From Deltaproteobacteria bacterium (lineage in GTDB: Bacteria > Myxococcota_A > UBA796 > JAFGLY01), in the NCBI GenBank assembly GCA_016927815.1, contig JAFGLY010000148.1, positions 1-36,836 on the forward strand: a stretch of 36,836 bases of DNA, read 5' to 3'. The position numbers and the translations under genes are program-made. Positions 13,196 to 34,235 of this stretch are shown piece after piece (positions within the stretch are counted from its first letter, which is position 1; every line of letters starts with the position of its first letter). The notes below the pieces were generated by a model. The model was not told the origin of the DNA and ran no database searches. It saw only the letters and a program-made list of their open reading frames with translations.

Positions 13196-13708
13196 ATGGA
13201 CGCACCGCTCGATCGCCTCCTGGCCCGGTTCGAGGAGCGGGTGCGCGTCCTGCCGGCACTCGCCGGGCAGACGGCCGTCGAGGTCGCGCCCGCGGACCTG
13301 GTGGAGGTCGTCGCGTTCCTCCGGGACGAAGCGGGATTCGATGTGCTCCTGGACCTCGTCGGAGTGGACCGGCTCGGCCACCCCGAGGCCCCGACCCCGC
13401 GCTTCGAGGTGCTCTACCACCTCAAGAGCCTGGCAGGGGGAGCCCGGGTCCGGGTCCACGTGCCCGTGCCCGACGACACGCTGGAGCTCCCCTCCTGCTG
13501 GCGGCTGTGGCACGCGGCCAACTGGCTGGAGCGGGAGGTGTGGGACCTGTTCGGGATCCGCTTTGCGGGTCATCCCAACCTGTGCAGGATCCTCTGCCAC
13601 CACCGGTTCGAGGGCCACGCGCTGCGTCGCGACTACCCCATCGGGCGCCGCCAGCGTCTCGACGCGCCCGAGGCGTTCCTGCTCACCGACGACCCGGAGT
13701 GGGCATGA
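13196..13708 (+). CDS. nuoC: NADH-quinone oxidoreductase subunit C
   Basis: The 170-residue product is the 30-kDa subunit that structures the connecting arm of complex I and has no cofactor. It carries the signature EREVWDLFGIRFAGHPNL with RRDYP at about 145, and the early DLVGVDRLGH region. It is separate from NuoD, unlike the NuoCD fusion of enterobacteria. A GGTGAGGA ribosome site overlaps the end of nuoB. Confidence 0.95.
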   Translation: MDAPLDRLLARFEERVRVLPALAGQTAVEVAPADLVEVVAFLRDEAGFDVLLDLVGVDRLGHPEAPTPRFEVLYHLKSLAGGARVRVHVPVPDDTLELPSCWRLWHAANWLEREVWDLFGIRFAGHPNLCRILCHHRFEGHALRRDYPIGRRQRLDAPEAFLLTDDPEWA

Positions 13709-14895
13709 GCACCCGGGTCCCCCCGATCCCCGCCGAGCGCTTCGTGCTCAACATCGGGCCCAGCCACCCGGTGACCCACGGCACGCTGCGCATCCAGATC
13801 GAGGCCGAGGGCGAGACCATCGTCCGCTCCGCCTGCGAGATCGGCTACCTCCACCGGGGGTTCGAGAAGGAGGCCGAGCGGGTCTACTGGGAGCAGGTCA
13901 CACCCTACGCCGAGCGCCTGAACTACTGCTCCAGCCTGCACAACTCGGTGGCCTGGTGCCACGCCGTGGAGACTTTGCTCGGGGTCCGGGCGCCTCCTCG
14001 GGCCCAGGCGCTCCGCGTCCTCGCGAGCGAGATCGCCCGCATCATGGACCACCTCGTGTGCCTCGCGGCCAACATCCTCGACGTGGGCGCCCTGTCCTGC
14101 TGGTGGTACCTCTACAACGTCCGCGAGCGGCTCTACGACCTCGTGGAGGACCTGTGCGGCCACCGGCTCATGGTCACCTGGGGCCGCGTGGGGGGGGTGG
14201 CCACCGACCTGCCCGAGGGCTGGGGGGAGCGGCTCCTCGTCGTGCTCCGAGAGGCGGGCGAAGCGGTGGGGGAGGTGCGCGAGATGCTCTCGAGCAACCG
14301 GATCTTCCTCGACCGGGTCGAGGGGGTCTGCGTGATCTCCCCCAAGGACGCGATCGCGCACGGCTTCACGGGACCCTGCCTGCGGGCGTGCGGGCTCCCG
14401 CGCGACCTGAGAAAGGACGAGCCCTACTGGGGGTACGAGCGCTACGCGTTCGACGTGCCGGTCCGCTCCCACGGCGACACGCTGGACCGCATGTGGATCC
14501 GCTTCGACGAGATCGAGGCGTCCACCCAGATCGTGCGCCAGGTGATCGAGAGCCTGCCGTCCGGACCCGTGATCCTCGACGACCCCGGGATCACGCTCCC
14601 GGCCAGGGAGGAGGTGCAATCCACCATGGAGGGCCTGATCCGGCACTTCAAGCGGATCATGCACGGCATCCACCCGCCTCGGGGCGTGGTCTACTCGGCC
14701 ACGGAGGCCCCCAACGGGGAACTGGGGTTCACCCTCGTGTCCGACGGGGGGCCCCGGCCCTGGCGCGTCAAGGTGCGTTCGCCGTCCTTCGCGCACTTCT
14801 CGGCCTTCCCGAGGATGATCAACGGATCCATGATCGCGGACGCCGTGGCCGCGCTGGGCAGCCTCAACGTGGTCGCCGGGGAGTTGGACCGATGA
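13705..14895 (+). CDS. nuoD: NADH-quinone oxidoreductase subunit D
   Basis: The 396-residue 49-kDa subunit forms much of the quinone-binding site next to cluster N2. It shows GPSHPVTHGTLR near the N-terminus, EIGYLHRGFEK, and YAERLNY, which are the conserved elements lining the quinone pocket. The family is descended from the large subunit of [NiFe] hydrogenase but lacks its metal cysteines, as here. The ATG overlaps the nuoC stop as ATGA. Length is normal. Confidence 0.97.
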   Translation: MSTRVPPIPAERFVLNIGPSHPVTHGTLRIQIEAEGETIVRSACEIGYLHRGFEKEAERVYWEQVTPYAERLNYCSSLHNSVAWCHAVETLLGVRAPPRAQALRVLASEIARIMDHLVCLAANILDVGALSCWWYLYNVRERLYDLVEDLCGHRLMVTWGRVGGVATDLPEGWGERLLVVLREAGEAVGEVREMLSSNRIFLDRVEGVCVISPKDAIAHGFTGPCLRACGLPRDLRKDEPYWGYERYAFDVPVRSHGDTLDRMWIRFDEIEASTQIVRQVIESLPSGPVILDDPGITLPAREEVQSTMEGLIRHFKRIMHGIHPPRGVVYSATEAPNGELGFTLVSDGGPRPWRVKVRSPSFAHFSAFPRMINGSMIADAVAALGSLNVVAGELDR

Positions 14896-15422
14896 ACGAC
14901 CCTTGGGCCCCGGACCTGGCGCCCCTGGCCCGGGAGATCCTGGCCGGAGCGCTCGTGCCCGGGGCGGCCACGCTGCCGCTCCTGTGGCTGGTGCAGGACC
15001 GACGGGGGTGGATCTCCGACGAGGCCCTGGCCTGGGTTGCCGGGTCCACGGGACGTTCCCTGGCCCAGGTGGAGGCCGTGGTCTCCTTCTACTCGATGTT
15101 CCGTCGGGCTCCGGCCGGACGGTGGGTGATCGAGGTCTGCCGCACGCTCTCCTGCGAGCTGGCCGGCGCTCCGAGGCTCCTCGCCCACCTGGAGGACCGG
15201 CTGGGCGTGCGCGCCGGGGAGACGACCCCCGACGGGGCCTTCACGCTCCTCGCGGTCGAGTGCCTGGCCTCCTGCGGGTCGGGCCCGGTGCTCCACGTCA
15301 ACGGGATTCCCTTCGAGCGGGTCACCCCCGAGCGAGCCGACGCCCTCCTGGACGCGCTGCGGGAGGACCGGCTGCCCGAGCGACCCGAGGCCGACCTGTG
15401 GACCTGGCCCCCCGCATCCTGA
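14892..15422 (+). CDS. nuoE: NADH-quinone oxidoreductase subunit E
   Basis: The 176-residue 24-kDa subunit holds the [2Fe-2S] cluster N1a in a thioredoxin-like fold. The four ligands are Cys83, Cys88, Cys124 and Cys128 (VCRTLSC and ECLASC). The N-terminal helical region with VEAVVSFYSMFRR is conserved. It overlaps nuoD as ATGA and runs 25 bp into nuoF. Together with NuoF and NuoG it forms the NADH-dehydrogenase module. Confidence 0.95.
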   Translation: MNDPWAPDLAPLAREILAGALVPGAATLPLLWLVQDRRGWISDEALAWVAGSTGRSLAQVEAVVSFYSMFRRAPAGRWVIEVCRTLSCELAGAPRLLAHLEDRLGVRAGETTPDGAFTLLAVECLASCGSGPVLHVNGIPFERVTPERADALLDALREDRLPERPEADLWTWPPAS

Positions 15423-16660
15423 CCGCGCGCTTCGGCGTGCCGGGGTCGCACACCCTCGAGGTGGCGCGGGCCTGTGGAGTCTACGCCGACCTGGGCCGGG
15501 TCTTGCGCCTGGAAGCCGAGGCCATCGCGGCCCAGGTCCGGGCGTCGGGCCTGCGCGGGAGGGGCGGCGCCGGGTTCCCCACGGGCGCCAAGTGGGGGTT
15601 CGTCCCGCCGCCCGAGCGGCGCCAGGGTCGACCCGTCCACCTGTTCGCCAACGCCGACGAGTCCGAGCCTGGCACGTTCAAGGACCGCGTGCTCCTCTGG
15701 CACGATCCCCACCGGGTGATCGAGGGCACGCTCGTGGCGGCCCGCGCGCTTTGCTGCCACCGGGTCTGGATCTACCTGAGGGGCGAATTCCGGTTCCTCC
15801 AGGAGCGGATCGACGCCGCGCTCGGCGAGGCCCGGCAGGCGAACCTCGTCGGGCCCGACATCCTGGGCAGCGGGTTCGACTGCGAGATCCGGACCTTTCG
15901 CGGCGCCGGCGCCTACGTCTGCGGCGAGGAGTCGGGGCTCCTCGAGAGCGTCGAGGGTCGAAGGGGCCTGCCCCGCATCAAGCCGCCCTACCCCGCGCTC
16001 GTGGGTGCCTTCGGCGACCCCACGGTGGTCCAGAACGTGGAGACCCTCGCGAACCTGCCCTGGATCCTGGAGCACGGCGCCCAGGCCTACCGGGCGTGGG
16101 GCACCGAGGCGTCCAGCGGGACCCGCCTGTTCTCCGTGTCGGGCCCTGTCCGGCGGCCGGGCGTGTACGAGCTGCCCCTGGGGACGCCGTTCCGGGAGTT
16201 GCTGGAAGGGTGCGCCGGCGGCCTGCGTCCGGGGCGTCGCCTCCTGGCCGTGCTCCCGGGCGGGTCCTCCACGCCCCTGCTCACGGCCGAACAGGCGCTG
16301 GGCGCGACCCTCGACCACGAGTGCCTGGAAGCCCTGGGCAGCTTCCTCGGGTCCGGTGGGGTGATCGTGCTCGACGACAGCGTGGATCCGGTCGCCGCGC
16401 TGGCCAACCTGACCCGCTTCTACGCCCACGAGTCCTGTGGCCAGTGTACGCCCTGTCGCGAGGGCTGCGGGTGGATGGCCCGCATCGCGGCGCGCGTGGC
16501 GGCCGGGGAGGGGCGGCAGGAGGACCTGGTCACCCTCGAGGACCTCGCACGGTCTCTCCGGGGCCGTACCCTCTGTGCCTTCGGGGACGCCGCGGCCGCT
16601 CCGGTGCTCTCGTTCCTCGAGACGTTCCGGCCTGCCTTTCTCGCACGGGTGCGGCCGTGA
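15398..16660 (+). CDS. nuoF: NADH-quinone oxidoreductase subunit F
   Basis: The 420-residue 51-kDa subunit binds NADH and FMN and carries cluster N3. The glycine-rich GLRGRGGAGFPTG (51-63) and NADESEPGTFKDR are the FMN/NADH site; GAYVCGEES and RIKPPYPA are conserved. The [4Fe-4S] ligands are Cys347, Cys350, Cys353 (ESCGQCTPC) and Cys393. I placed the start at a GTG inside nuoE because the sequence preceding it is the other frame of nuoE; a slightly later start is possible. Confidence 0.95.
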   Translation: MDLAPRILTARFGVPGSHTLEVARACGVYADLGRVLRLEAEAIAAQVRASGLRGRGGAGFPTGAKWGFVPPPERRQGRPVHLFANADESEPGTFKDRVLLWHDPHRVIEGTLVAARALCCHRVWIYLRGEFRFLQERIDAALGEARQANLVGPDILGSGFDCEIRTFRGAGAYVCGEESGLLESVEGRRGLPRIKPPYPALVGAFGDPTVVQNVETLANLPWILEHGAQAYRAWGTEASSGTRLFSVSGPVRRPGVYELPLGTPFRELLEGCAGGLRPGRRLLAVLPGGSSTPLLTAEQALGATLDHECLEALGSFLGSGGVIVLDDSVDPVAALANLTRFYAHESCGQCTPCREGCGWMARIAARVAAGEGRQEDLVTLEDLARSLRGRTLCAFGDAAAAPVLSFLETFRPAFLARVRP

Positions 16661-18213
16661 ACCGGGTCACCTGCACCATCGACGGCCAGACCGTCACGGT
16701 GCCGGAGGGCACGGCCCTCATCGAGGCCGCACGCGCCCTGGGCATCGAGATCCCCCACTTCTGCTACCACCCGCACCTGCCGGTGGCCGGCAACTGCCGC
16801 ATGTGCGTGGTCGAGATCCAGGGGTCCCCCAAGCTGGAGATCGCCTGCAACACGGCGGCCCGAGAGGGCATGGCGGTCCGCACGGACACCGAGGCGGTAC
16901 GGGCCGCCCGGCGGGCCAACATGGAGTTCCTCCTGGCCAACCACCCTCTCGACTGCCCCATCTGCGACCAGTCGGGCGAGTGCCTCCTGCAGGAGTACTG
17001 GGACGCCCACGCCCGACACGCCTCCCGGCTCCGGGATCCCAAGGTGACCAAGGGCAAGCGGATCGATCTCGGCGACGACCTCGTGCTCGACCAGGAGCGG
17101 TGCATCGCCTGCACCCGGTGCGTGCGGTTCTCCGAGACGGTCACCCGGACGGGCGACCTGGTCCTCCTGGGCCGCTCGGACCACCAGCGGATCGGCCCGG
17201 CCACGGGTGCACGGATCACGCACGCCTACCAGGGGTGTCTCGCCGAGATCTGCCCGGTGGGAGCCCTCACCAGCCGTAGCTTCCGCTTCCGCAAGCGCGT
17301 GTGGTGGCTCGAGGAGGTGGACTCCATCTGCCCGGGGTGCGCCACGGGCTGCAACGTGCGGGTGTGCGTTCAGGACGACACCGTCCACCGGATCCTGGCC
17401 CGCCGCAACGACGCCGTGAACCGATCCTGGGCCTGCGACGAGGGCCGGGGCCTTTACCGCGAACTTGCCGCGCCCGAGCGGCCCCTCCTCGGGCGCGTGG
17501 CCGGCCGGCCGGCCGCTCGCGAGGAGGCACTGGCCGCGGCCGCCGCTCGACTCGGCAGCGCCCGCAGGCCCGGGCTGGTGCTCGGCGGGCAGGCCACCTG
17601 CGAGGCGCTCCTCGCGCTCGTGCGGCTTCACGAGCGCGCCCTGCCCGCGGCGCGGCTGTTCCACGTGCCCGGGCCGGACCCGGGTCGCAGGGCGTGGAGC
17701 GACGGCATCCTGGTCCACGCCGACAAGGACCCCGACACCCGGGGCGTGCGTCTCCTGGCAACGTGCGCCGGAGGCGTGGAAGACGGCGAGGCGCTCGCCC
17801 GAGCCCTGGCCGACGAAGCGCTCGACCTGCTCCTGGTCCTGGAGGACGACGCGCTCGGGCGGCTCGGGATCCCGGCCGCTCCGGGGGTGGTGGCCCTCGC
17901 CTTCCACGGTCACCGTTCTGCCGCGGCCGCCGAGGTCCTGGTGCCGGTGGCCGGCTGCTGGGAGCAGGATGGCACCTATGTGAACGCCGCAGGCCGGGTC
18001 CAGCGACTGCACCGGGCGGTACGGCCCGCGGGGGAGGCCGTGCCCGCGTACGTGGCGCTCCACCGGCTGGGGGCGCTGCTCGGCGTGGACCTGGGCTGCT
18101 CCACCTCCGAGGCCGCGGCGGGCGCGCTGGCCGAAACCATCTCGGGGTTTCCGCGCGAGGTGGGGCCCGAGGGCGTGGTGCTGCCGCCCCCCTTGGACGG
18201 AGGGACGCCGTGA
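16657..18213 (+). CDS. nuoG: NADH-quinone oxidoreductase subunit G, compact form
   Basis: The 518-residue product is the 75-kDa subunit that wires NuoF to the connecting arm. All cluster ligands expected of the N-terminal part are present: [2Fe-2S] Cys36/47/50/64, His96/Cys100/103/109, Cys149/152/155/199, and an N7-type set Cys225/228/232/260. The molybdopterin-like C-terminal region is reduced to about 250 residues, against more than 500 in E. coli, so the protein is unusually short. There is no stop or frameshift scar; the gene ends in GTGA overlap with nuoH. The compact form looks intended, since the tail (AAAEVLVPVAGCWEQDGTYVNAAGR-like) retains the ending typical of the molybdopterin fold. 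Confidence 0.93.
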   Translation: MNRVTCTIDGQTVTVPEGTALIEAARALGIEIPHFCYHPHLPVAGNCRMCVVEIQGSPKLEIACNTAAREGMAVRTDTEAVRAARRANMEFLLANHPLDCPICDQSGECLLQEYWDAHARHASRLRDPKVTKGKRIDLGDDLVLDQERCIACTRCVRFSETVTRTGDLVLLGRSDHQRIGPATGARITHAYQGCLAEICPVGALTSRSFRFRKRVWWLEEVDSICPGCATGCNVRVCVQDDTVHRILARRNDAVNRSWACDEGRGLYRELAAPERPLLGRVAGRPAAREEALAAAAARLGSARRPGLVLGGQATCEALLALVRLHERALPAARLFHVPGPDPGRRAWSDGILVHADKDPDTRGVRLLATCAGGVEDGEALARALADEALDLLLVLEDDALGRLGIPAAPGVVALAFHGHRSAAAAEVLVPVAGCWEQDGTYVNAAGRVQRLHRAVRPAGEAVPAYVALHRLGALLGVDLGCSTSEAAAGALAETISGFPREVGPEGVVLPPPLDGGTP

Positions 18214-19529
18214 GCCCCGGCCTCCAGGTCCTGGTCGTCGCCGCGAAGATCGTCTTCGTCCTCGGGTTCGTGCTGGGCCTGCTCCCGGTGGTCATCTGGA
18301 TGGAGCGCAAGGGCGCCGCGTTCCTCCAGGACCGGCCCGGACCCAACCGGGCGGGCGTGCTCGGGATCCGGGCCTCGGGCGCCCTGCACGCCGTGGCGGA
18401 CGTGATCAAGCTCGTCTTCAAGGAGGACGTGGTGCCCTCGGGCGTGGAGCGGGGGTGGTGGGCGCTCGCGCCGCTCGTGGGCCTCACCACGGCGCTCGTC
18501 ACGTTCGGATTCGTGCCCTTCGGAGACGAGATCCGGATCGCCGGCCAATCGGTGCGTCTCCAGGTCGTGGACGCGGAGGGCGGCGCACTCTTCGTGCTCG
18601 CCTTCACCTCGCTGTCCGTCTACGGCACGATGCTGGCCGGCTGGGCCTCCAACAACAAGTTCAGCCTGCTGGGAGGCCTGCGGGCCTCCGCGCAGACGGT
18701 CTCCTACGAGCTGGCCATGGGCCTCACCTTCGTGTCGGTGCTGCTCGTGTACGGCACGCTCGCGCTCGACCGGATCGTGGAGGCGCAGGCCGGTGCCCCC
18801 TGGCACTGGGGCGTGGCCCAAGGCTTCGGGATCGTGGGCGTGCCGGCCTTCGTGCTCTTCTTCGTAGCGGTCTTCGCCGAGACCAACCGGGTCCCCTTCG
18901 ACCTGCCCGAGGGCGAGGCCGAGCTGGTGGGCGGGTTCCACACCGAGTATTCGTCCTTGCGGTTCGCGCTCTTCTTCATGGGCGAGTACGCCGCGCTCGT
19001 CGTGTCCTCGGCGGTGGTCACCACCTTCTTCTTCGGCGGCTGGCAGGTGCCTTTCCTGGACGGCACGGCGTTGCGCCTGCACGCCGGGGCGGTGCTGGCC
19101 GCGGTCGGGATCGCGGTCGGGATCGGCGCGTCGGGCGGCGCGGTCCTTGCCCTCCGAGCGCGACGCCGGCGCTTCTACCGCGCCCTGCTCCCGGCCGATC
19201 CCCGCCGCCGGGAGCCCCTGTTCTGGGCCGTGGTCTGGACCGTGGCGGCCTTGGGTGGGCTGGGCCTGGCCGTCGCAGGGCTGGTGGACCTGCCTGCCCG
19301 GGTGCCCTGGGGGCCCGGAGCCGTGGCCATCATGGCCCAGTTCGGCGCCTTCACCGTCAAGACCCTCTTCGGGTGCTGGTGCTTCGTCTGGGTCCGGTGG
19401 ACCCTTCCCCGGTTCCGGTACGACCAGATCATGGACCTGGGCTGGCGCCGCCTCGTGCCGCTCGCCCTGGCGCTGGTGGGCCTCACCGCCGTCTGGGTGG
19501 TGGCCCGCGAGACGTGGGGAGGCGGATAG
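18210..19529 (+). CDS. nuoH: NADH-quinone oxidoreductase subunit H, with C-terminal insertion
   Basis: The 439-residue product is the membrane subunit that closes the quinone cavity and links it to proton pumping. Core motifs are intact: WMERKGAAFLQDRPGPNR, WASNNKFSLLGGLRASAQ, and the acidic loop AETNRVPFDLPEGEAELV. Typical NuoH has about 330 residues. Here about 90 extra residues (roughly 283-372) are inserted between FFFGGWQVPFLDG and the last helices (FTVKTLFGCWCFVWVRWTLPRFRYDQ, in two parts). The insert contains two predicted transmembrane helices (about 290-315 and 337-360) and an Arg-rich loop between them. The GTG start overlaps the nuoG stop. Confidence 0.94.
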   Translation: MSPGLQVLVVAAKIVFVLGFVLGLLPVVIWMERKGAAFLQDRPGPNRAGVLGIRASGALHAVADVIKLVFKEDVVPSGVERGWWALAPLVGLTTALVTFGFVPFGDEIRIAGQSVRLQVVDAEGGALFVLAFTSLSVYGTMLAGWASNNKFSLLGGLRASAQTVSYELAMGLTFVSVLLVYGTLALDRIVEAQAGAPWHWGVAQGFGIVGVPAFVLFFVAVFAETNRVPFDLPEGEAELVGGFHTEYSSLRFALFFMGEYAALVVSSAVVTTFFFGGWQVPFLDGTALRLHAGAVLAAVGIAVGIGASGGAVLALRARRRRFYRALLPADPRRREPLFWAVVWTVAALGGLGLAVAGLVDLPARVPWGPGAVAIMAQFGAFTVKTLFGCWCFVWVRWTLPRFRYDQIMDLGWRRLVPLALALVGLTAVWVVARETWGGG

Positions 19530-19532
19530 CCC

Positions 19533-20153
19533 GTGCCCAACCGACCCACAGGCCGGAAACGGACCCTCGCCGAGCGGACCTACCTCCTCCCGGTGCTCCG
19601 GGACCTCGCCCGCACCGGCGCCCACCTCGTCCGCACCGTGGCCCGGCCGGAGGCCAGGGTCACCGTGGAGTACCCCGAGGTGGAGAAGCCGATGTCGCCA
19701 CGCTTCAAGGGGGCGCACCGGCTGCTCCTCCGCGACGACGGCGGCCCGAGGTGCGTGGCGTGCATGTGCTGCGCGATGGTCTGCCCGGCGAAGTGCATCA
19801 CCATCGTCGCAAGAGAGGACCCCGAGGATCCCCAGGAGAAGGTGCCCGTCCGCTTCGAGATCGACCTGCTCCGGTGCATCTTCTGCGGCTACTGCGTGGA
19901 GGCTTGTCCCAAGGACGCCATCCGCATGGACACCGGCATCTTCGAGCTCAACGCCTTCGCCCGGCAGGACCTCGTGCACGGGATGGCCTACCTCACGAAC
20001 CTCGCCAAGGACGCGCGGGCCGAGGCCGCCGTCTTCCACCGCCAGCACCCCGAGGCGGCCCCGCCCGGGTTCTTGCCGGACGAGCCCCTGCCCGTGGACC
20101 CCGAGATCCTGGCCCGGCCGCGGCGGCGCGTGCCACCGGTCACCCGGGAGTAG
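19533..20153 (+). CDS. nuoI: NADH-quinone oxidoreductase subunit I
   Basis: The 206-residue 23-kDa subunit carries two [4Fe-4S] clusters (N6a, N6b) that hand electrons to NuoB. The ligand sets are Cys74/77/80/84 with Cys88 and Cys115/118/121/125, each followed by the usual CP. An extra Cys79 sits within the first motif. The C-terminal tail of about 60 residues is Pro- and Arg-rich. The GTG start lies four bases after the nuoH stop, downstream of a GGAGGCGG-like site inside nuoH. Confidence 0.95.
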   Translation: MPNRPTGRKRTLAERTYLLPVLRDLARTGAHLVRTVARPEARVTVEYPEVEKPMSPRFKGAHRLLLRDDGGPRCVACMCCAMVCPAKCITIVAREDPEDPQEKVPVRFEIDLLRCIFCGYCVEACPKDAIRMDTGIFELNAFARQDLVHGMAYLTNLAKDARAEAAVFHRQHPEAAPPGFLPDEPLPVDPEILARPRRRVPPVTRE

Positions 20154-20156
20154 GTC

Positions 20157-20651
20157 GTGGAACTCGTCCTGTTCGTCCTGTTCTCCGGAGCGGCCCTCGC
20201 CGCGGCGGGCGTGGTGGTCACCCGCACCCGGCCCTTCTCGGCGGCCATGGCGCTGGTGGCCTGCCTCTTCTTCCTGGCCGGCGACTACGTGATCCTGCAA
20301 GCACCCTTCGTGGCTGCCCTCCAGATCCTCGTCTACGCCGGGGCCATCCTGGTCCTGTTCCTCTTCGTGGTGATGCTCCTGCGCCTCGAAGGCGACGAGG
20401 CCCTGCCCCGGCTGGGCCCGCGCCAGGCCGTGGGCCTCGTGCTGGCCGGGATCGTGGGCTGTGCCTCCGTGGCGTTCGCCGCGTTCGAGGTCTCCGGCCC
20501 GTTCCCCGAGACCGGCCCGCTGTTCGGAACCGCCGACGCGCTCGCCGCCACCCTCCTCGACGGCAGGAACCTGCTCGCCCTCGAGGGCATCTCAGTGCTG
20601 CTCACCACTGCGCTCGTAGGCGCCGTGGTGCTCGGCCGGAAGGAGCTCTAG
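20157..20651 (+). CDS. nuoJ: NADH-quinone oxidoreductase subunit J
   Basis: The 164-residue product is a five-helix membrane subunit of complex I. The conserved helix with [22 protein letters not shown] shows the pi-bulge-type helix seen in the family. The start is GTG. It lies between nuoI and nuoK as in the canonical operon. Confidence 0.93.
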
Positions 20652-20655
20652 CGCC

Positions 20656-20964
20656 ATGGTTTCGGTCGGGCTCCTGCCGGTGCTGGTCGTCTCGCTGTTG
20701 CTGTTCACCATCGGCGTGGTGGGCGTGCTCGTCCGGCGCAACCTGCTCGTCGTGTTCATGTCCCTCGAGCTCATGCTCAATGCGGTGGCTCTCGCGTTCG
20801 TGGGGTTCGCCCGGGCCCGCGCGGACATGGACGGGCAGGTCGCCGCGCTCTTCGTCATGGCCGTGGCCGCCGCGGAGGTGGCGGTGGGGCTCTCCCTCGT
20901 GATCCTGCTGTTTCGCACCCGCCATACCACCCAGCTCGACGATCTCACGATGCTGAAGGGCTGA
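20656..20964 (+). CDS. nuoK: NADH-quinone oxidoreductase subunit K
   Basis: The 102-residue product is the three-helix subunit of the MrpC type. The two conserved membrane glutamates needed for proton transfer fall in [10 protein letters not shown] (about residue 38) and [12 protein letters not shown] (about residue 74). Length and position are normal; it is four bases from both neighbours. Confidence 0.95.
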
Positions 20965-20968
20965 ACCG

Positions 20969-22909
20969 GTGGACGTCGCCCTCCTCTGGACCCTGCCGGG
21001 GCTTCCGCTCTTCGGAGCGATCGTGCTCGCGATCGCCGGTCGGAGGGCGTCGCCCGCGTTCGCGGCCTCAATGGCCGGAGGCACGGCTCTCGGGGCCCTC
21101 GGTGTCGCGATCTGGACTCTGGCGGCCACGCTGCGAGGAATGGGAGCCCGCCTGGCCGTGGATCTCGGCACCTGGTTCGCGGCTGGCCCCACGAGGGCCA
21201 GCGCCGTGCTGGCGGCGGATCCGCTCACCGCCAGCATGGCGGTCATGGTGGCCGGCGTGGGCTTCCTCATCCTGCTCTTCTCGGCGGGGTACATGGACGC
21301 GCCCGAGGATCGGCCCGGATCGTGGCGCTTCTACGCCTGCATGGACCTCTTCCTCGGGTCCATGCTCCTCCTGGTCCTGGCCGACGACCTGCTGCTCCTC
21401 TTCGTCGGATGGGAGGGCGTGGGCGTCTGCTCCTGGCTGCTCATCGGGTACTGGTTCCAGGACCCGGTCCATGCCGCGGCCGCCCGCAAGGCGTTCGTGG
21501 TGAACCGGGTGGGCGACGCGGCCCTCCTGCTCGCGCTGGCGCTCCTGGTGGGCGCTCTGGGTCCGCGTGCGACGTTGCGCATCCCCGAGATGCAGGCCGT
21601 CCTGGCCGAGGACCCGAGCCTGCTGGCCGGGAGCGCCACGGCCGCGGGGCTCCTGCTGCTGTTCGCGGCCACCGGCAAGAGCGCCCAGATTCCGCTCTAC
21701 ACCTGGCTTCCAGATGCCATGGTGGGGCCCACGCCGGTCTCCGCGCTCATCCACGCGGCCACCATGGTCACGGCCGGGGCGTGGCTGCTGCTCCGGCTCC
21801 ACTTCGTGCTGGCCCTCTCGCCCGTCGCGCTGGGCGCGGTGGCCGTGGTGGGCGCCGCCTCCGCCCTCTGGGCCGGTCTGCTCGCGATCTTCCCCCACGA
21901 CCTGAAGCGCGTGCTCGCGTACTCCACGATCTCCCAGCTCGGCCTCCTCTTCCTGGGCATCGGGGTTGGGGCGGGCACCGCGGCGTACTTCCACCTCTTG
22001 ACCCACGCCTTCTTCAAGGCGCTCCTCTTCCTGGCCGCGGGCAGTGTCGTCCACGCCCTCCATCACCAGGACGTGCGGCGCATGGGCGGCCTCGCCCGGC
22101 GCATGCCCTGGACCACCGCCGCGTTCCTCGTGGGCTTCCTGGCGATCGTCGGGTTCCCGGGATTCTCGGGGTTCTTCTCCAAGGACGCCGTGCTCTTCGC
22201 CGCCCTGGCGGCCCGGCCCACGGACATCGGTGCGGGGACATTCCCGCTGCCGGTCCTGCTGTGCATGGTCGGGTTCGTCGCGGCGCTGCTCACCGCGCTC
22301 TACATGTCCAGGATCCTGTTCCTGGTCTTCTTCGGACGCTACCGGGGCGAGGGCCGACCGCGCGAGAGCCGGCCCGTGCTGGTCGTGCCGCTCCTGGTCC
22401 TCTCGGCCCTGGCGCTGTTCGGCGGCCTCCTCGACCTGCCCGCGTGGATCGGCGTGGACTCAGGCTGGCTCACGCGGGCGGCGGGTCCGCACCTGGGCGG
22501 GACACCCCCGGCGCACGGTGGAGCGGTGGAGGCGGCCCTCGGGCTCGGGCTCGCCCTGGCCAGCCTGGCCGTGGTGGCCTGGGCCGGGCGCCGGTGGGTG
22601 GACCGGCAGGACAGCACGGACTCCGTCGGGTCCGCGCTGCCCGGCACGGCCCGCTTTCTCGCGGCCGGCGGTCGGGTGGACGGAATGTACGACGCCCTCG
22701 TGGTCCGGCCGCTTCGCGGGCTGGCCCGGAGCGGGGTGGCGCGCCTGGAGGCCTCGGGCGTGCAGCGCGCCGGACGCGCCGCGGCCGCCCTGCTCGAGGC
22801 CGCGGGCGCGTGGAACGGACGCGTGCTCCAGCGCGGGCCCGTCCAGGACTATGCCCTAGGCATCGCGCTGGGGGCGGCCTTCCTCCTCCTCCTGGCGGCG
22901 GTGAGCTGA
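20969..22909 (+). CDS. nuoL: NADH-quinone oxidoreductase subunit L
   Basis: The 646-residue product is the distal antiporter-like pump subunit of complex I. It shows the family motifs FVGWEGVGVCSWLLIGYW, KSAQIPLYTWLPDAMVGPTP (lysine and proline of the discontinuous helix), HDLKRVLAYSTISQLG, and the Mrp-like THAFFKALLFL. A C-terminal lateral helix and anchor end the protein. It starts with GTG five bases after nuoK stops. Confidence 0.96.
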   Translation: MDVALLWTLPGLPLFGAIVLAIAGRRASPAFAASMAGGTALGALGVAIWTLAATLRGMGARLAVDLGTWFAAGPTRASAVLAADPLTASMAVMVAGVGFLILLFSAGYMDAPEDRPGSWRFYACMDLFLGSMLLLVLADDLLLLFVGWEGVGVCSWLLIGYWFQDPVHAAAARKAFVVNRVGDAALLLALALLVGALGPRATLRIPEMQAVLAEDPSLLAGSATAAGLLLLFAATGKSAQIPLYTWLPDAMVGPTPVSALIHAATMVTAGAWLLLRLHFVLALSPVALGAVAVVGAASALWAGLLAIFPHDLKRVLAYSTISQLGLLFLGIGVGAGTAAYFHLLTHAFFKALLFLAAGSVVHALHHQDVRRMGGLARRMPWTTAAFLVGFLAIVGFPGFSGFFSKDAVLFAALAARPTDIGAGTFPLPVLLCMVGFVAALLTALYMSRILFLVFFGRYRGEGRPRESRPVLVVPLLVLSALALFGGLLDLPAWIGVDSGWLTRAAGPHLGGTPPAHGGAVEAALGLGLALASLAVVAWAGRRWVDRQDSTDSVGSALPGTARFLAAGGRVDGMYDALVVRPLRGLARSGVARLEASGVQRAGRAAAALLEAAGAWNGRVLQRGPVQDYALGIALGAAFLLLLAAVS

Positions 22910-22911
22910 CC

Positions 22912-24384
22912 ATGCCGGTCCTCACGATCCTGGTCGGCCTGCCGGCGCTGGGTGCCCTGCTCGTCGCGCTCCTGCCGAAGCGCCTGGCCCGCCCGGCCGC
23001 GCTGGGCGCGAGCCTGGCCACCCTCGGCCTCGCCCTCGCTGCCTGGGCCCGGTTCGATCCCACCGTGCCCGGAGCCTTTGCGCTGCAGGACGGACCCTGG
23101 CCCTGGATCCGGGACCTGGGCGTGTCCTGGGCGCTCGGCCTGGACGGCGTGGGCCTGGTGCTCGTGCTAGTCACCGCCGTCCTGGTGCCCACCGCGCTGG
23201 CCTCGGACCGAACCCCCGGGCGGGCGCCCGCCGCGCTCCTGCTCCTGTGCGAAAGCGCGGTACTCGGGTGCTTCACCGCCCTGGACCTGGTCCTGTTCTA
23301 CGCCTTCTTCGAGGCCATGCTCCTGCCCGTGCTCCTGGTCCTGGCCCTGTGGGGCGGTCCGGGCCGCCTGCGCGCGGCCGTGCGGGTACTGCTCTACACG
23401 CTGGCCGGTTCGCTCCCGCTCCTGGCCGCGGTGGCCGCCACCTGGGTCCACCACAGGTCCGCGACCGGCGTCCCCTCGGCTCTGCTGGCCGACCTGCTGG
23501 CCACGCCCGTGCCCACGTCCTGGGCACCCTGGCTCTTCGCAGGCTTCGCGCTCGCCTTTGCGGTGAAGTCGGCGGCGGTTCCCCTGCACGGGTGGCTGCC
23601 CGACGCCTACGCCGAGGCCCCGGTGGGCGCCCTGGTCGTCCTGGCGGGGCTGCTCGCCAAGGCGGGCCTCTTCGGGTTCCTGCGCTGGGCCCTGCCCCTC
23701 TTTCCGGAGGCGGCGATCCGGGCGGGGCCCGTGCTGCTGGCCCTGGGCGCCCTGGGCGTGATCTACGGCGGCCTGATGGCCTGGGTGCAACAGGACCTGA
23801 AGCGGGTGGTCGCGTGGACCTCGGTCAGCCACCTCGCGCTGTGCCTCGTGGGCATCGGAGCGGGCACGCCCGATGCCCTGGCAGGAAGCGCGTGGCTGGC
23901 CGCGGTCCACGGCCTCTACGTCGGCGCCCTGTTCCTCCTGGTCGACCTGTTGGAGGCCCGAAGCGGACGACGCGGCGTGGACGACTTCGGAGGGCTCGGC
24001 GCCATGCTTCCGCGGTTCTCCTTCCTGCTGGGCCTCACCGTGCTGGCCGCCATCGCCGTCCCGGGGCTGGCCGGGTTTCCGGGCGAGATCCTGGTGATCA
24101 TCGGCACCTGGCGGGTGGCGCCGGTCGCGGCCGTGGCCGGTGCCTCGGGCGCGGTGCTCGGCGCGGTCTACCTGCTGCGTGTGCTGGAAAAGGTCTGCTT
24201 CGGCCGCCCCTCCGAAACGGCGCGTGTCCTCGTGGACCTCCGGCCCGCGCCCACCCTGCCGCTCGCGGTCCTGGGCCTGCTGCTCGTGGGGTTGGGTGTA
24301 CGGCCCCTCGTGAACGTCGTGACCCCGGCCACGGACCGGGTGGCGGCCGCCCTCGAGACGGCCCGGACGGTGGAGGCCCCGTGA
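22912..24384 (+). CDS. nuoM: NADH-quinone oxidoreductase subunit M
   Basis: The 490-residue product is the second antiporter-like subunit. Family features visible are FYAFFEAMLLPVLLVL with the conserved glutamate, KSAAVPLHGWLPDAYAEAP with the pump lysine, and QQDLKRVVAWTSVSHLALCLVG. About 14 hydrophobic helices are apparent. The ATG lies two bases after nuoL and the end overlaps nuoN as GTGA. Confidence 0.96.
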   Translation: MPVLTILVGLPALGALLVALLPKRLARPAALGASLATLGLALAAWARFDPTVPGAFALQDGPWPWIRDLGVSWALGLDGVGLVLVLVTAVLVPTALASDRTPGRAPAALLLLCESAVLGCFTALDLVLFYAFFEAMLLPVLLVLALWGGPGRLRAAVRVLLYTLAGSLPLLAAVAATWVHHRSATGVPSALLADLLATPVPTSWAPWLFAGFALAFAVKSAAVPLHGWLPDAYAEAPVGALVVLAGLLAKAGLFGFLRWALPLFPEAAIRAGPVLLALGALGVIYGGLMAWVQQDLKRVVAWTSVSHLALCLVGIGAGTPDALAGSAWLAAVHGLYVGALFLLVDLLEARSGRRGVDDFGGLGAMLPRFSFLLGLTVLAAIAVPGLAGFPGEILVIIGTWRVAPVAAVAGASGAVLGAVYLLRVLEKVCFGRPSETARVLVDLRPAPTLPLAVLGLLLVGLGVRPLVNVVTPATDRVAAALETARTVEAP

Positions 24385-25850
24385 CCCCGTTGCCCTCGAT
24401 CGCGGTCCCGGAACTCGGGCCCGACCTCCTGCGGGCGGCTCCGCTGCTGGTGGTCTTCGGAGCGGCGCTGGCGGTGCTCCTCACGGGTGCGAGCCGGCGT
24501 GGCCGGGGCCGCCGAGCTGCCTTCCTCCTGGCGATCGGAAGCCTCGCCCTGGCGGCGGCGCTCACGGTGCCGCTTCTCCTGGAGCCGGGCGGCCCTGTTT
24601 TCTCGGGCGCGGCCCGGCTCGACCGCTTCTCGGGGCTGGTCCTCCTCCTCCTGGTGCTGTGCACCGCGGCCACGGCCGCGCTCTCGCCCTCCTTGCTGGA
24701 GGCCGTGGACGCGAGGATCCCCGAGCACGACGCGTTGTTGCTCCTGTCGCTGACGGGCATGTCCCTGCTGGTGGTGGCCCACGACCTCCTTCTCGCGTTC
24801 GTGGGCCTGGAGATCGTGACCGTGGCTGCCTGGGCGCTCACCGGCCTCAACCGGTCGGAGGCCGCCGGCGTGGAGGCCGCGGTCCGGACCTTCGTGCTCG
24901 CCGCCTTCTCGAGCGCCCTCCTCCTGTACGGCGTGGCCTTCGTCTACGGGGCGGCGGGGGGCACCGGGTACGCCGAGGTGGCCAGCGCCGCCGGCGAGGG
25001 GCGGATTCTGCAGGTGGGCCTGGCCATGGTGCTGGTCGGGTTCTGCTTCAAGGTGGGCGCCGTGCCCTTCCATCCCTGGGTCCCCGACGTGGTCCAGGGC
25101 GCGCCCGCACCTGCGTCCGCGCTCTTCGCCACCGCCGTCAAGGTGGCTGCGTTCGCCGCTCTCATCCGGTTCGCCGCGGCCGTGCTGCCCACCGCCGGAG
25201 GCGCGTGGGGCCTGGCCCTCGCGATCATGGCTGCCGCCAGCATGCTCGTGGGCGCGGCGGCGGCCTTCGTGCAGAGGGACCTGAAGCGCTTCCTCGGGTG
25301 GTCCGCCGTGAGCCACACCGGCTTCGTGCTCGTGCCGGTGGCGGGACTCGGCACGAGCCGAGGTGCGCCCGATCTGCACGGCGCGCTCTTCTACCTGGCG
25401 GCCTACGCGGTGGCGTCCCTGGGGGTGTTCGCCCTGGTCGCGGCCATGACCTCCGAAGGGCGCGAAGATCCGGACATGCAGCGGCTCAAGGGGCTGGGCC
25501 GTCGTCACCCCTGGATCGCCGCAGGCCTCGGGATCTGCCTGCTCTCGCTGGCAGGACTGCCCCTGACCGCCGGCTTTCCCGCCAAGGTCTACGTGCTCCT
25601 CGCCGCCTTCCAGAACGACCGCGGGTGGCTCGCGGTCGTGGTGGTGCTGGCGGCGCTCGCGGGTGCGGCCTACGCGCTCAAGCCGCTGGTGCTCCTGCTC
25701 GAGGCACCGGGCGAGGAAGCTCCGGTCCATGTCGGGTTCGCCGGGCGGGTCGTGCTCGCGGCGGCGGTGGCCGGGGTCGTCGGACTCGGCGTGCTCCCGG
25801 GTCCCTTCGCGGACCTCTGCCGGCTGGCCCTGGCCGGGCTGGGGCGGTGA
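24381..25850 (+). CDS. nuoN: NADH-quinone oxidoreductase subunit N
   Basis: The 489-residue product is the third antiporter-like subunit and the last gene of the nuo operon. It carries AFVGLEIVTVAAWALTGLNR, KVGAVPFHPWVPDVVQGAP and QRDLKRFLGWSAVSHTGFVLV, with the expected glutamate and lysines. The GTG start overlaps the nuoM stop. No clear terminator follows; the next gene starts 37 bp on with its own ribosome site. Confidence 0.96.
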   Translation: MTPLPSIAVPELGPDLLRAAPLLVVFGAALAVLLTGASRRGRGRRAAFLLAIGSLALAAALTVPLLLEPGGPVFSGAARLDRFSGLVLLLLVLCTAATAALSPSLLEAVDARIPEHDALLLLSLTGMSLLVVAHDLLLAFVGLEIVTVAAWALTGLNRSEAAGVEAAVRTFVLAAFSSALLLYGVAFVYGAAGGTGYAEVASAAGEGRILQVGLAMVLVGFCFKVGAVPFHPWVPDVVQGAPAPASALFATAVKVAAFAALIRFAAAVLPTAGGAWGLALAIMAAASMLVGAAAAFVQRDLKRFLGWSAVSHTGFVLVPVAGLGTSRGAPDLHGALFYLAAYAVASLGVFALVAAMTSEGREDPDMQRLKGLGRRHPWIAAGLGICLLSLAGLPLTAGFPAKVYVLLAAFQNDRGWLAVVVVLAALAGAAYALKPLVLLLEAPGEEAPVHVGFAGRVVLAAAVAGVVGLGVLPGPFADLCRLALAGLGR

Positions 25851-30496: not shown

Positions 30497-30510
30497 AGGG
30501 GGCGAGAGGG

Positions 30511-30582
30511 TGGGCGAGACAGGATTCGAACCTGCGACTTCCACCGTGTGAGGATGGCACTCTCCCGCTGAGTTACTCGCCC
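30511..30582 (-). tRNA. tRNA-Val (anticodon CAC)
   Basis: The 72-nt minus-strand sequence folds as a full cloverleaf: acceptor GGGCGAG/CTCGCCC with discriminator A, D-stem ACTC/GAGT, anticodon stem CCATC/GGTGG with one T-G pair, and T-arm GCAGG TTCGAAT CCTGT. The anticodon loop CTCACAC puts CAC at 34-36, reading GTG (valine), a favoured codon here. The 3' CCA is not encoded. It could serve as an integration site, but no att-like duplication or integrase is near. Confidence 0.95.
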
Positions 30583-30663: not shown

Positions 30664-31974
30664 ATGCCGCCCTCCATCGCGGACCTGGTGCGGAACGCGG
30701 GCGTGGTGGGTGCGGGCGGCGCGGGATTCCCGACCTGGGCGAAGCTCTCCTCCAGGGTCGACACCTGCCTGGTCAACGCCGCGGAGTGCGAGCCGCTCCT
30801 GTACAAGGACAAGGAGCTGTGCCGCCTGGAGGCGAAGCGCCTCGTGGACGGCCTGCGCCTCGCCATGGAGGCCACGGGTGCCACCCGGGGGATCGTCTGC
30901 ATCAAGGAGAAGGCACACGACGCCATTCGGGCCATCGAGCCCTTCGTGATGGGCCCGATCCACCTGCACCGCCTGGGCGACTTCTACCCGGCCGGCGACG
31001 AGGTCGTGCTGGTCTTCGAGGTCACGGGCCGCCTGGTGCCGCCGGGCGGCCTCCCGCTCCACGTGGGCTGCCTGGTGAACAACGTGGAGACCCTCGTCAA
31101 CGTGTCTCGCGCGGCGGAGGGCATCCCGGTCACCACCAAGGCGCTCACCATCACGGGTGCGGTGGCCGAGCCCGCCTCCTTCGTGGTGCCTCTCGGCATC
31201 TCCGTGCGCGAGGTCCTCGAGGCCGCGGGGGGCGCCACGGTGCCCGACGGCGTGGCCATCGAGGGCGGGGCCATGATGGGTCGGGTCGTCCTCGATGCTC
31301 CGGTCACGCGCACCACTGGCGGGTACGTCGTGCTGGACCGCAGCCATGCCCTCGTCCGGCGCCTGCTCCGCCCGGACGAGGTCCACGTCCGGATCGCCCG
31401 GTCCGCGTGCGACCAGTGCGCCTTCTGCACCGAGCTCTGCCCCCGGTACCTGCTGGGATACGCGGTGGAGCCCCACAAGGTCATGCGGTCCGTGGGGTTC
31501 GCCGGGGAGAAGGCCGCAGCCTGGAACGCCTGGGGGCTCCTGTGCTGCGAGTGCGGGCTGTGCGACCTGTTCGCCTGCCCCGAAGACCTGCCTCCGCGCC
31601 GCATGTGCGTGGCCGCCAAGGCGGCCGCCGCCGGCCACGCGGCCACGCCTCCCCCCTCCCGCGGGCAGCCCCACCCGCTGCGCGAGGCCCGGCGCGTCCC
31701 GACGGCGCGCCTGGTGGAGCGCCTCGGGCTCGCCCCGTACGATCGACCCGCGCCCATGCGTCCGTTTCCCGGCCTCCCGTCCCGCGTCTTCCTGCCCTTC
31801 CAGCAGCACGTGGGCGTCCCCGCGGCCCCCGTGGTCCGCGTGGGCGACCGGGTGCGGGTCGGCCAGGTGGTGGCCGCGGTGGATCGCGGGGCCCTCGGCG
31901 TGGACATCCACGCCTCGATAGACGGCCGCGTCACCGCCATCGAAGCCGGCGGGCTCCGGATCGAGAGGGAGTGA
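30664..31974 (+). CDS. pduS: PduS-like microcompartment electron-transfer protein
   Basis: The 436-residue product resembles PduS, the corrin reductase of propanediol-utilisation compartments, and more distantly RnfC/NuoF. The N-terminal flavin/NADH-binding part has VGAGGAGFPTWAKL (about 15-28) and ECEPLLYKDKEL; an SLBB-like domain follows. Two [4Fe-4S] sites are complete: Cys249/252/255/259 (CDQCAFCTELCP) and Cys294/297/300/305 (CCECGLC with FACP). The C-terminal sandwich-hybrid region contains HVGVPAAPVVRVGDRVRVGQVV. In known systems PduS reduces cob(III/II)alamin using NADH, partnered by PduT at the shell. Length matches PduS (about 450). GGGAGGA precedes the ATG. It lies two bases before pduT. 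Confidence 0.9.
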   Translation: MPPSIADLVRNAGVVGAGGAGFPTWAKLSSRVDTCLVNAAECEPLLYKDKELCRLEAKRLVDGLRLAMEATGATRGIVCIKEKAHDAIRAIEPFVMGPIHLHRLGDFYPAGDEVVLVFEVTGRLVPPGGLPLHVGCLVNNVETLVNVSRAAEGIPVTTKALTITGAVAEPASFVVPLGISVREVLEAAGGATVPDGVAIEGGAMMGRVVLDAPVTRTTGGYVVLDRSHALVRRLLRPDEVHVRIARSACDQCAFCTELCPRYLLGYAVEPHKVMRSVGFAGEKAAAWNAWGLLCCECGLCDLFACPEDLPPRRMCVAAKAAAAGHAATPPPSRGQPHPLREARRVPTARLVERLGLAPYDRPAPMRPFPGLPSRVFLPFQQHVGVPAAPVVRVGDRVRVGQVVAAVDRGALGVDIHASIDGRVTAIEAGGLRIERE

Positions 31975-31976
31975 CC

Positions 31977-32540
31977 ATGGACCTCGACCGCTTCCCCCCC
32001 TCGCTCGGCCTCGTGGAGCTGTCGAGCATTGCGCGCGGCATCGAGACCGTGGACCGCATGCTCAAGGCGGCCGAGGTGGACCTCGTCCTTGCGCGCACCG
32101 TCTGCTCGGGCAAGTACATCGTCGTGGTGGGCGGGGAGCTGGACCGGGTCGAGGCCAGCATGGCCGCGGGCGTGGCCAACGCCGCAGAGTGCGCCGTGGA
32201 CCACTTCATCATCCAGAACGTCCACCCCGACGTGTATCCGGCCCTCACGTCCACGGGCGTGATCGAGCGCCGGGAGGCCCTGGGCGTGCTCGAGTCGTTC
32301 TCGGTGGCGTCCCTCGTCGAGGCCGTGGACCGGGTCGCCAAGGCCGCGCCCGTGGCCGTGGTGGAGTGCCGGATCGCCATGGCCCTGGGGGGCAAGGCCT
32401 TCCTGGTCTTCACCGGGGACGTGGATGCCGTGCGGGCCTCGCTGGACGCCGGCGCCGAGGTCATCGAGGCCCGCGGCCTGCTCGTCAACCGCGTGCTCAT
32501 CCCCGATCCGCGGCCCGAGCTGTTCGAGACCCTCCTCTGA
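31977..32540 (+). CDS. pduT: PduT-like trimeric BMC shell protein with iron-sulfur cysteine
   Basis: The 187-residue product has tandem BMC domains (about 9-90 and 100-180), the BMC-T fold that forms pseudohexameric trimers in shell facets. It is close to PduT: LGLVELSSIARGIETVDRML, then TVCSGKY with Cys43 at the position of the PduT pore cysteine, of which three (one per subunit) hold a [4Fe-4S] cluster. NVHPDVYPAL and GVLESFSVASLVEAVDR continue the match. It would pass electrons across or at a shell with PduS. No BMC-H, BMC-P, signature enzyme or encapsulation-peptide gene is seen in this window. The gap to pduS is two bases. Confidence 0.92.
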   Translation: MDLDRFPPSLGLVELSSIARGIETVDRMLKAAEVDLVLARTVCSGKYIVVVGGELDRVEASMAAGVANAAECAVDHFIIQNVHPDVYPALTSTGVIERREALGVLESFSVASLVEAVDRVAKAAPVAVVECRIAMALGGKAFLVFTGDVDAVRASLDAGAEVIEARGLLVNRVLIPDPRPELFETLL

Positions 32541-32549: not shown

Positions 32550-34235
32550 TCACTGGACCTGGCAGATCTCGAACGCCCGGTCGCAGCGCACCACCACCTC
32601 GCCTCCCTTGGAAACCTCCACCAGGAGCACCTTCTCGAGACCCGCCTCGCCTCCGAAGTCGGCCCAGATGGCGTACGACCCCGGCGGCACGGTCTCGCCC
32701 GGGACCGGTCCTCGTTCCCCGCGGATCTGCACCGCTCGGGCGTCGCCCTCGATCCGGATTCGACCCGTGGCCGCCGACGTGCGTGCCACGGTCGCGCTCA
32801 CGGGCGTGTGCCCTCCTCGGCGCCGGGGTGTGCCCTCGGCGATCCCGGGCGATGGCGTGTCGGCGGTCCCCGGCGATGGCACCTCGGGCGGGTCGGGCAG
32901 GGCGAGCGGATCGGGGGGAGCGGACGGAGCGTCCGGCAAGGGCTCCGGATCCTCCAGGGGCGCCCTCTGCGGGCCTGAGGCCACTTGAAGCCCCACCAGG
33001 ACGAGCCCGGCGGCGAGACCCAGCCCCACGAGCCACGCAACGTGGCCCGGCCGTGCCCGTCCGGATTGGATCGCGTCGGGTGTCTTCGCGTGTGGAGCCC
33101 GGGCGCCCGCCCCGCCCAGGGGAACGAAGGCGGTCCGGGCCCCCGACTCGGTGGGGACCGCCTCGGGAGGGGTAGTGGCGTCCCCGGGCTCGGCCTCCGG
33201 CTGGATCCTCGGGGCGGGCACCGGTGCCTCCTGGGCCTCGGACCCGTCTTCGAGGCGGCTGTGGCCGTCCACCGTCTCCACCGGGGCGGACCAGGTCTCC
33301 ACGAACTCCCGGCCCGTGAGCTCCCCGTCCTTCTCCACCCGACTCCGCAGGATCGCCGGGAGCGTGCTCCACGCCCAGTCGGCCAGGAGCGGCTCCGGAT
33401 GGTCCCGCCTCAGGCGCACCACCCGGTGGTGGAACGCGTCCGCCGTGGGCCGGGTGTCGGGGTCGAAGGCGAGCCCCTCCCGGGCCAGGTCCAGGATTCG
33501 GGGGTCCGAGACGACCTTCGCCAGCTCCGCGAGCGTGTCGGTCACCACCGCGGCGTGGAGGGGCGCACGGGTGCAGGCGTTGTGCACGCGGGTGCCCGTG
33601 AGCAGTTCGCACAGCACCACCGTGAGGGCGTAGACGTCGCCGGCGTGGGAGTCCACGCCCATCAGGCGCTCCGGGGACAGGTACCCGGCCGAGCCCAGGA
33701 CCATGGCCTGGGTGCGCGCCTCCCGGCCGGACAGCACGCCGCGCGCCACGCCCCAGTCCAGGACCTTGATCTCACCCGCAAGGGTGACCTGGATGTTGGA
33801 GGGCTTGATGTCCCGGTGCAGCACGCGGAGCACCGAACCGTCCTCCAGAGGGTGGTCCCAGGCCACGTGAAGGGCCCGGGCCACCTCCTGCACCACCTCC
33901 AGGACGATCCCCACGGGCAGGCGGCCCAGCGCGCTCCGCACCTGGAGCAGGTTGACCCCGCCCACCAGTTCCATCACGACCGTCCAGCTTCGGTTGATCT
34001 GCACCAGGCCCAGCACCTGCACGATGGCGCGGTACGAGAGCCGACCCAGCAGGCGGGCCTCGTCCCGGAGGCGCACCGCCATCTCCCCGTCGGCGGCCGT
34101 GGTGGCGTTCAGGACCTTGAGCGCCACGGGCCGGGCGAATCCGCCCGCGCCGATCATCTCGGCCCGGTACACCCGGCCGAACCCCCCCTGGCCGAGGACC
34201 TTGTCGATCCGGTACCGACGCGCCGACGAGCCCAT
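32550..34235 (-). CDS. Transmembrane Hanks-type Ser/Thr protein kinase
   Basis: The 561-residue product has an N-terminal eukaryotic-like kinase domain (about 8-280): glycine loop GQGGFG (15-20), Lys40 in VALK, catalytic HRDIKPSN (140-147), DWG in place of DFG (Asp160) and GYLSPER activation segment. An acidic, Pro-rich linker (about 330-400) leads to one transmembrane helix (about 398-420). Beyond it lie a Pro/Glu-rich spacer and an extracytoplasmic domain (about 490-561) with two cysteines (551, 558) that may form a disulfide. The long Pro-rich spacer suggests envelope crossing. I started at the ATG of MGSSARRYR; longer frames upstream are shadows. It is convergent with pduT and diverges from the GT-C-like gene. 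Confidence 0.9.
   Translation of the reverse strand: MGSSARRYRIDKVLGQGGFGRVYRAEMIGAGGFARPVALKVLNATTAADGEMAVRLRDEARLLGRLSYRAIVQVLGLVQINRSWTVVMELVGGVNLLQVRSALGRLPVGIVLEVVQEVARALHVAWDHPLEDGSVLRVLHRDIKPSNIQVTLAGEIKVLDWGVARGVLSGREARTQAMVLGSAGYLSPERLMGVDSHAGDVYALTVVLCELLTGTRVHNACTRAPLHAAVVTDTLAELAKVVSDPRILDLAREGLAFDPDTRPTADAFHHRVVRLRRDHPEPLLADWAWSTLPAILRSRVEKDGELTGREFVETWSAPVETVDGHSRLEDGSEAQEAPVPAPRIQPEAEPGDATTPPEAVPTESGARTAFVPLGGAGARAPHAKTPDAIQSGRARPGHVAWLVGLGLAAGLVLVGLQVASGPQRAPLEDPEPLPDAPSAPPDPLALPDPPEVPSPGTADTPSPGIAEGTPRRRGGHTPVSATVARTSAATGRIRIEGDARAVQIRGERGPVPGETVPPGSYAIWADFGGEAGLEKVLLVEVSKGGEVVVRCDRAFEICQVQ

What the first reader, a model, noticed from the sequence alone, without database searches (positions are those of the whole stretch)
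30664..32540. PduS-PduT pair with no visible microcompartment locus
Seen: a PduS-like protein with two complete [4Fe-4S] sites and, two bases later, a BMC-T protein whose Cys43 aligns with the PduT pore cysteine. Known: in propanediol and related compartments these two partner as an electron relay across the shell. Here no BMC-H, BMC-P, signature enzyme, aldehyde dehydrogenase or regulator lies within roughly 30 kb upstream or 4 kb downstream; instead the pair lies between a tRNA gene and a convergent Ser/Thr kinase. Inference: either a satellite module serving a shell encoded elsewhere, or a stand-alone redox pair, perhaps membrane- or filament-associated.
Basis: partly seen in the sequence, partly recalled or inferred. 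Interest (0 to 1): 0.75.

Follow-up and report, generated by a model that had tools for sequence, protein, structure and literature searches.

The report
Detached electron-relay pair of a microcompartment
Two genes for a likely electron outlet of a bacterial protein-shelled organelle sit alone in this stretch of DNA, but the shell and its enzymes are encoded elsewhere in the same genome, and the same detached pair recurs in many bacterial phyla that nearly always also carry a shell.

Summary
pduS (30664-31974) and pduT (31977-32540) are intact, have all ligand cysteines, and no other shell gene, aldehyde dehydrogenase or class II aldolase lies on this contig (the window is the whole contig).

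The "missing" compartment is elsewhere in the same draft genome. A contig end carries BMC-H, BMC-P and the start of a targeted acylating aldehyde dehydrogenase. A second contig has a BMC-T like Haliangium HO-5816, and a third a class II aldolase with a targeting tail. The shell proteins are closest to the Haliangium ochraceum (HO) shell. A sister genus has the same split, with the same kinase gene beside pduST. More distant Myxococcota carry pduST beside, or in one operon with, the HO-type shell genes.

So this is a satellite of an HO-type microcompartment, not a stand-alone redox pair. The pattern is general: in 50 genomes with a PduS relative (49 with no shell gene found near it), 48 have BMC-P and 49 have further BMC domains. 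The pair switched between linked and detached at least about 7-10 times on the PduS tree.

Likely role (inferred): PduS oxidises NADH made by the dehydrogenase and passes electrons out through the PduT pore cluster.

The parts
30664..31974 (+). pduS: NADH/FMN/two-[4Fe-4S] RnfC-like oxidoreductase
   Evidence: Pfam domains; AF2 model pLDDT 89, best fold matches RnfC 9eri_C and 7zc6_C
31408..31440 (+). first [4Fe-4S] motif of PduS (C249, C252, C255, C259)
   Evidence: sequence; 90/90 relatives conserved
31543..31578 (+). second [4Fe-4S] motif of PduS (C294, C297, C300, C305)
   Evidence: sequence; 90/90 relatives conserved
31977..32540 (+). pduT: trimeric BMC-T shell protein
   Evidence: two PF00936 domains; best PDB matches 3nwg and PduT 3n79/3pac by sequence and fold
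32103..32105 (+). codon of the pore cysteine Cys43 of PduT (predicted [4Fe-4S] ligand)
   Evidence: TGC; Cys in 76/76 pduS-adjacent PduTs and 0/7 sampled main-locus BMC-Ts
30509..30582 (-). tRNA-Val (CAC), divergent neighbour; flank, not part of the module
   Evidence: ARAGORN
32550..34235 (-). Ser/Thr protein kinase, convergent neighbour; also beside pduST in the sister genus G001, probably syntenic rather than functional
   Evidence: Pkinase 3.4e-30; 50% identity over 371 aa to the kinase on the G001 pduST contig, plus a C-terminal match

Best explanation
pduST here is a two-gene satellite locus of a Haliangium-type (HO-like) metabolosome whose remaining genes are scattered over at least three other contigs. 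SHOWN: intact PduS and PduT with all ligand cysteines; BMC-H, BMC-P, the N-terminal part of an acylating aldehyde dehydrogenase, an HO-5816-like BMC-T and an EP-tailed class II aldolase elsewhere in the same genome; physical linkage of orthologous pduST to the HO-type shell genes in other Myxococcota; one further genus of the family with the same detached arrangement. INFERRED: PduT is made from its own small transcript and inserted as a trimer in that shell, with PduS docked on its inner face. The aldolase produces an aldehyde in the lumen, the dehydrogenase turns it into acyl-CoA and NADH, PduS reoxidises NADH through FMN and two clusters, and electrons leave through the PduT pore cluster to a cytosolic acceptor. 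This would regenerate NAD+ without a compartment alcohol dehydrogenase. Confidence: about 0.9 for the satellite reading, about 0.5 for this electron-export role; the figure below is for the satellite reading with some electron-relay role.
For: Own genome: BMC-H and BMC-P at C8, AldDH N-terminus with EP-like helix running off the contig end, C110 BMC-T best match HO-5816, BMC-H best natural match HO-5815, class II aldolase C215 with C-terminal EP-like tail. Contig composition agrees, r 0.985-0.993. Sister genus G001: complete main locus on one contig, pduST on another with the same kinase neighbour. Linked forms: G045 and G058, L077 and L078. Among 50 genomes with a PduS relative, 48 have BMC-P and 49 have more BMC domains than PduT alone. 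Linked/detached changes at least 7-10 times on the PduS tree. Mechanism: Citrobacter PduS is an NADH-reducible FMN, 2x[4Fe-4S] protein that copurifies with PduT (PMC2982820). Own genome has no PduL hit, no EutB and no glycyl-radical enzyme hit.
Against: No expression, localisation or biochemical data. The main locus is cut by the contig end, so one BMC-P is seen and the main-locus BMC-T, other BMC-Ps and any alcohol dehydrogenase there are unseen. Distances between contigs are unknown; C142 ends 4.3 kb after pduT, so the pair could lie within about 10 kb of the main locus. Direction of electron flow and the external acceptor are not testable here. Two genomes lack BMC-P (G142, G159) and one of them shows no other BMC domain.
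Confidence: 0.8

Rival explanations
1. A stand-alone PduS-PduT redox pair working without any shell, for example on membranes or filaments.
For: No shell genes within the contig. No conserved neighbour around 53 other loci without nearby shell genes. One genome (G159, Opitutaceae VE3) shows only the two PduT domains and no BMC-P.
Against: 48 of 50 genomes with a PduS relative have BMC-P and 49 have further BMC domains. Orthologues sit in HO-type shell operons. The window genome itself has BMC-H and BMC-P.
Confidence: 0.04
2. The pair is close to the main locus and only looks detached because the assembly broke between contigs C142 and C8.
For: C142 ends 4.3 kb after pduT and C8 ends inside the aldehyde dehydrogenase; the join is unknown.
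Against: In the sister genus the complete main locus has 11.5 kb upstream and about 4 kb or more downstream without pduST, and pduST there sits among unrelated genes with the same kinase. Even if true, a convergent kinase and at least two other genes would still separate it from the operon.
Confidence: 0.08
3. PduS serves as a corrin reductase for a B12-dependent enzyme, as in the Pdu system.
For: Same domain make-up as Pdu PduS.
Against: No EutB and no diol dehydratase large subunit found in the genome (the diol dehydratase search had no positive control). PduS is known from B12-free compartments (PMC4207490, PMC6325248).
Confidence: 0.06
4. Satellite of the shell, but electrons flow inward: PduT feeds PduS from the cytosol to reduce something in the lumen.
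For: Proposed as possible for PduS in other compartments (PMC4207490); nothing here fixes the direction.
Against: The aldehyde dehydrogenase reaction produces NADH, so an oxidising outlet is the simpler need; the published PduT cluster potential (+99 mV) favours export from NADH.
Confidence: 0.15

Closest known systems
PduS/PduT of the propanediol-utilising compartment (Citrobacter, Salmonella)
   Same: Domain order, identical spacing of both cluster motifs, pore cysteine, adjacent gene pair
   Different: Encoded apart from the shell operon; no B12-dependent signature enzyme found in the genome
HO-type microcompartment of Haliangium ochraceum (Sutter et al. 2021, PMC8217296)
   Same: BMC-H closest to HO-5815, double-stacking type BMC-T closest to HO-5816, AldDH with aldolase, satellite loci
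   Different: The catalogue's main text does not mention PduS or PduT; here a PduST pair with a natural pore cysteine is present, whereas HO-5812 was engineered to bind a cluster (5dii)
SPU and SPU-like loci with PduS (Axen et al. 2014, PMC4207490)
   Same: The linked Myxococcota form pduS-pduT-tpiA-rpiB-deoC-BMC-H matches the sugar-phosphate plan
   Different: In the window genome the candidate aldolase is class II and the genes are scattered
Satellite loci, e.g. 'EUT modules' and CcmK3/K4 (PMC8217296)
   Same: Shell protein, with or without an enzyme, distal from the main locus
   Different: The module is a shell-bound electron relay rather than a substrate module or shell proteins only

Membership tests
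PduS | Complex1_51K + SLBB + Fer4 dicluster + RnfC_N domains | tested here: met
PduS | Two four-cysteine motifs with Pdu spacing | tested here: met
PduS | Binds FMN, oxidises NADH, contacts PduT | not testable with these tools
   only the Gly-rich and ECEP motifs are seen
PduT | Tandem BMC domains (BMC-T) with pore cysteine aligned to PduT Cys38 | tested here: met
PduT | [4Fe-4S] cluster in the trimer pore | not testable with these tools
   inferred from Cys43
Satellite locus (Sutter 2021) | Distal from a main locus that has BMC-H and BMC-P in the same genome | tested here: met
   not on the same contig, but the physical distance is unknown because of contig breaks
Satellite locus (Axen 2014, strict) | Shell genes only, no other BMC-associated gene beside them | tested here: not met
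   pduS is BMC-associated, so by that definition it is 'satellite-like'
HO-type microcompartment | HO-like BMC-H and HO-5816-like BMC-T | tested here: met
   (best matches among solved structures only)
HO-type microcompartment | Characteristic BMC-P triplet | tested here: inconclusive
   one BMC-P seen; locus cut by the contig end; sister genus G001 main locus has three
HO-type microcompartment | AldDH of the HO/SPU5/SPU7 branch | not tested
   only the first 155 residues are available

The most novel reading that the evidence does not exclude
Detached pduST is a separately placed, separately regulated 'electron port' module that many phyla plug into different sugar-phosphate/aldehyde compartments, replacing the alcohol dehydrogenase as the way to regenerate NAD+; in some genomes PduT is the only trimeric shell protein, so that every BMC-T tile is an electron port.
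Probability: 0.3. Interest if true: 0.65.

Novelty: new variant of a known kind. Interest (0 to 1): 0.4.

Why it matters
Satellite loci and PduST are both known, but a pduST-only satellite recurring across many phyla, nearly always with a shell elsewhere, was not found described in the papers searched (supplementary tables were not readable). It suggests that HO-type compartments, the main structural model with an unknown function, have a natural iron-sulfur electron port in some relatives, which makes electron export and NAD+ recycling in incomplete-core compartments directly testable. It also shows that shell inventories built from one locus can miss redox components.

Tried and rejected
A neighbour-clustering search for a conserved partner near loci without nearby shell genes found none beyond pduS/pduT themselves. 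DeoC in the window genome is only a weak hit on C170 with no clear called gene, so the class II aldolase was preferred as candidate signature enzyme. The sigma-70/terminator scan of the pair found no promoter (uninformative in a 73% GC genome). Misbinning of the contig was considered and rejected on composition and on the kinase synteny with the sister genus. The diol dehydratase search had no positive control, so its negative is weak.

Full report
OBSERVATION. The pair is real and intact. pduS (30664-31974) carries the four expected domains and pduT (31977-32540) two BMC domains, with a 2-base gap. Cluster motifs have the same spacing as the biochemically studied Citrobacter PduS. Across 90 aligned PduS proteins all eight cysteines are invariant, and across 76 pduS-adjacent PduTs the pore residue is always cysteine. 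In contrast, seven BMC-Ts of main shell loci, sampled from relatives, lack it. AlphaFold models (pLDDT 89 and 91) match RnfC and PduT structures.

WHERE THE COMPARTMENT IS. The window is the entire contig C142 of a 216-contig draft genome of 3.99 Mb, 97.3% complete. Elsewhere in that genome, contig C8 carries BMC-H (839-1132), BMC-P (499-807) and, running off its first base, the N-terminal 155 residues of an acylating aldehyde dehydrogenase with an encapsulation-peptide-like helix. Contig C110 carries a 238-residue BMC-T closest to Haliangium HO-5816. Contig C215 carries a class II aldolase ending in a proline-rich linker and a short amphipathic tail. This aldolase is 61% identical to the one inside the pduST operon of relative G058, and 56% identical, tail included, to a homologue in sister genus G001. 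The BMC-H is closest to HO-5815. Tetranucleotide profiles of C8, C110 and C215 agree with the window at r 0.989-0.992, so misbinning is unlikely.

RELATIVES. In G001, the same-family genome in the sample, a complete main locus (BMC-H, BMC-P, AldDH, BMC-T, BMC-P, BMC-P, class II aldolase) is on one contig. pduST (PduS 60%, PduT 75% identical) is on another, again with a convergent kinase 50% identical to that in the window. In other Myxococcota the pair is linked: G045 has pduS-pduT-tpiA-rpiB/deoC-BMC-H-BMC-P-AldDH-BMC-T-BMC-P-BMC-P-BMC-T, and L078 has the same order; G058 has pduS-pduT-tpiA-class II aldolase-rpiB/deoC-BMC-H; L077 has the pair divergent beside a full locus. The window's PduS falls in a supported clade with these (SH-aLRT 98).

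GENERALITY. A scan of one genome per species gave at least 573 PduS relatives; the 80 best come from Myxococcota, Acidobacteria, Verrucomicrobia, Planctomycetes, Elusimicrobia and others. At the sensitivity used, 22 pduST pairs have other shell genes within the fetched flanks, 27 have none with at least about 4.5 kb on both sides, and 26 have none but short flank on at least one side. Whole-genome searches of 50 of these genomes (49 chosen because no shell gene was found close to the PduS gene) found BMC-P in 48, mostly three, and more BMC domains than PduT alone in 49. In Planctomycetes bacterium CA13 the main locus and pduST lie about 0.63 Mb apart on one 8.6 Mb contig. The linked/detached state changed at least 10 times by parsimony, 7 forced by well-supported branches. 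No third gene is conserved around the detached pairs. The pair therefore moves as a two-gene unit, and nearly always in genomes with a shell.

MECHANISM. From published work PduS is an NADH-reducible FMN protein with two coupled clusters and copurifies with PduT, whose pore holds a cluster (PMC2982820, PMC6325248). The window genome gave no PduL, EutB or glycyl-radical enzyme hit, and the diol dehydratase search was negative but without a control. The simplest reading is an aldolase-AldDH compartment in which PduS reoxidises NADH and PduT conducts electrons out. The direction, the acceptor and the physical association with this shell are inferred, not shown.

LIMITS. The main locus is truncated by an assembly gap; contig order is unknown; all genomes but a few are drafts; the tblastn linkage test can miss diverged shell genes; the 80 loci are those most similar to the PduS alignment used, not a random sample; gene calls in relatives are my own, by reading frame and GC pattern.

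Noticed in passing
window 12026-25613: A complex I (nuo) operon with NuoB, D, F, H, J, K, L, M/N-like genes lies in the window, while contig C8 beside the shell genes (L006:7528-17352) holds a second nuo operon whose D and H genes abut, apparently without the NuoEFG NADH module.
   Followed up: partly
L105, L119, L128 genomes (G128, G138, G145): Exactly three BMC domain hits per genome (one BMC-H plus two that appear to be the PduT domains) with three BMC-P: the detached PduT may be the only trimeric shell protein.
   Followed up: no
L150 genome (G159, Opitutaceae VE3): pduST present but no BMC-P and no BMC domain other than PduT found in the draft; either incomplete assembly or a true orphan pair.
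   Followed up: no
L049:9287-10654: G064 (same class) has a divergent PduS-like gene (31% identity) between AldDH and a BMC-T without pore cysteine in its main locus, and in addition a separate pduST with the pore cysteine (L048).
   Followed up: partly
G001:C406 and G001:C119: Sister genus G001 also has an EutB and a glycyl-radical enzyme homologue, so its compartment may take further substrates.
   Followed up: no
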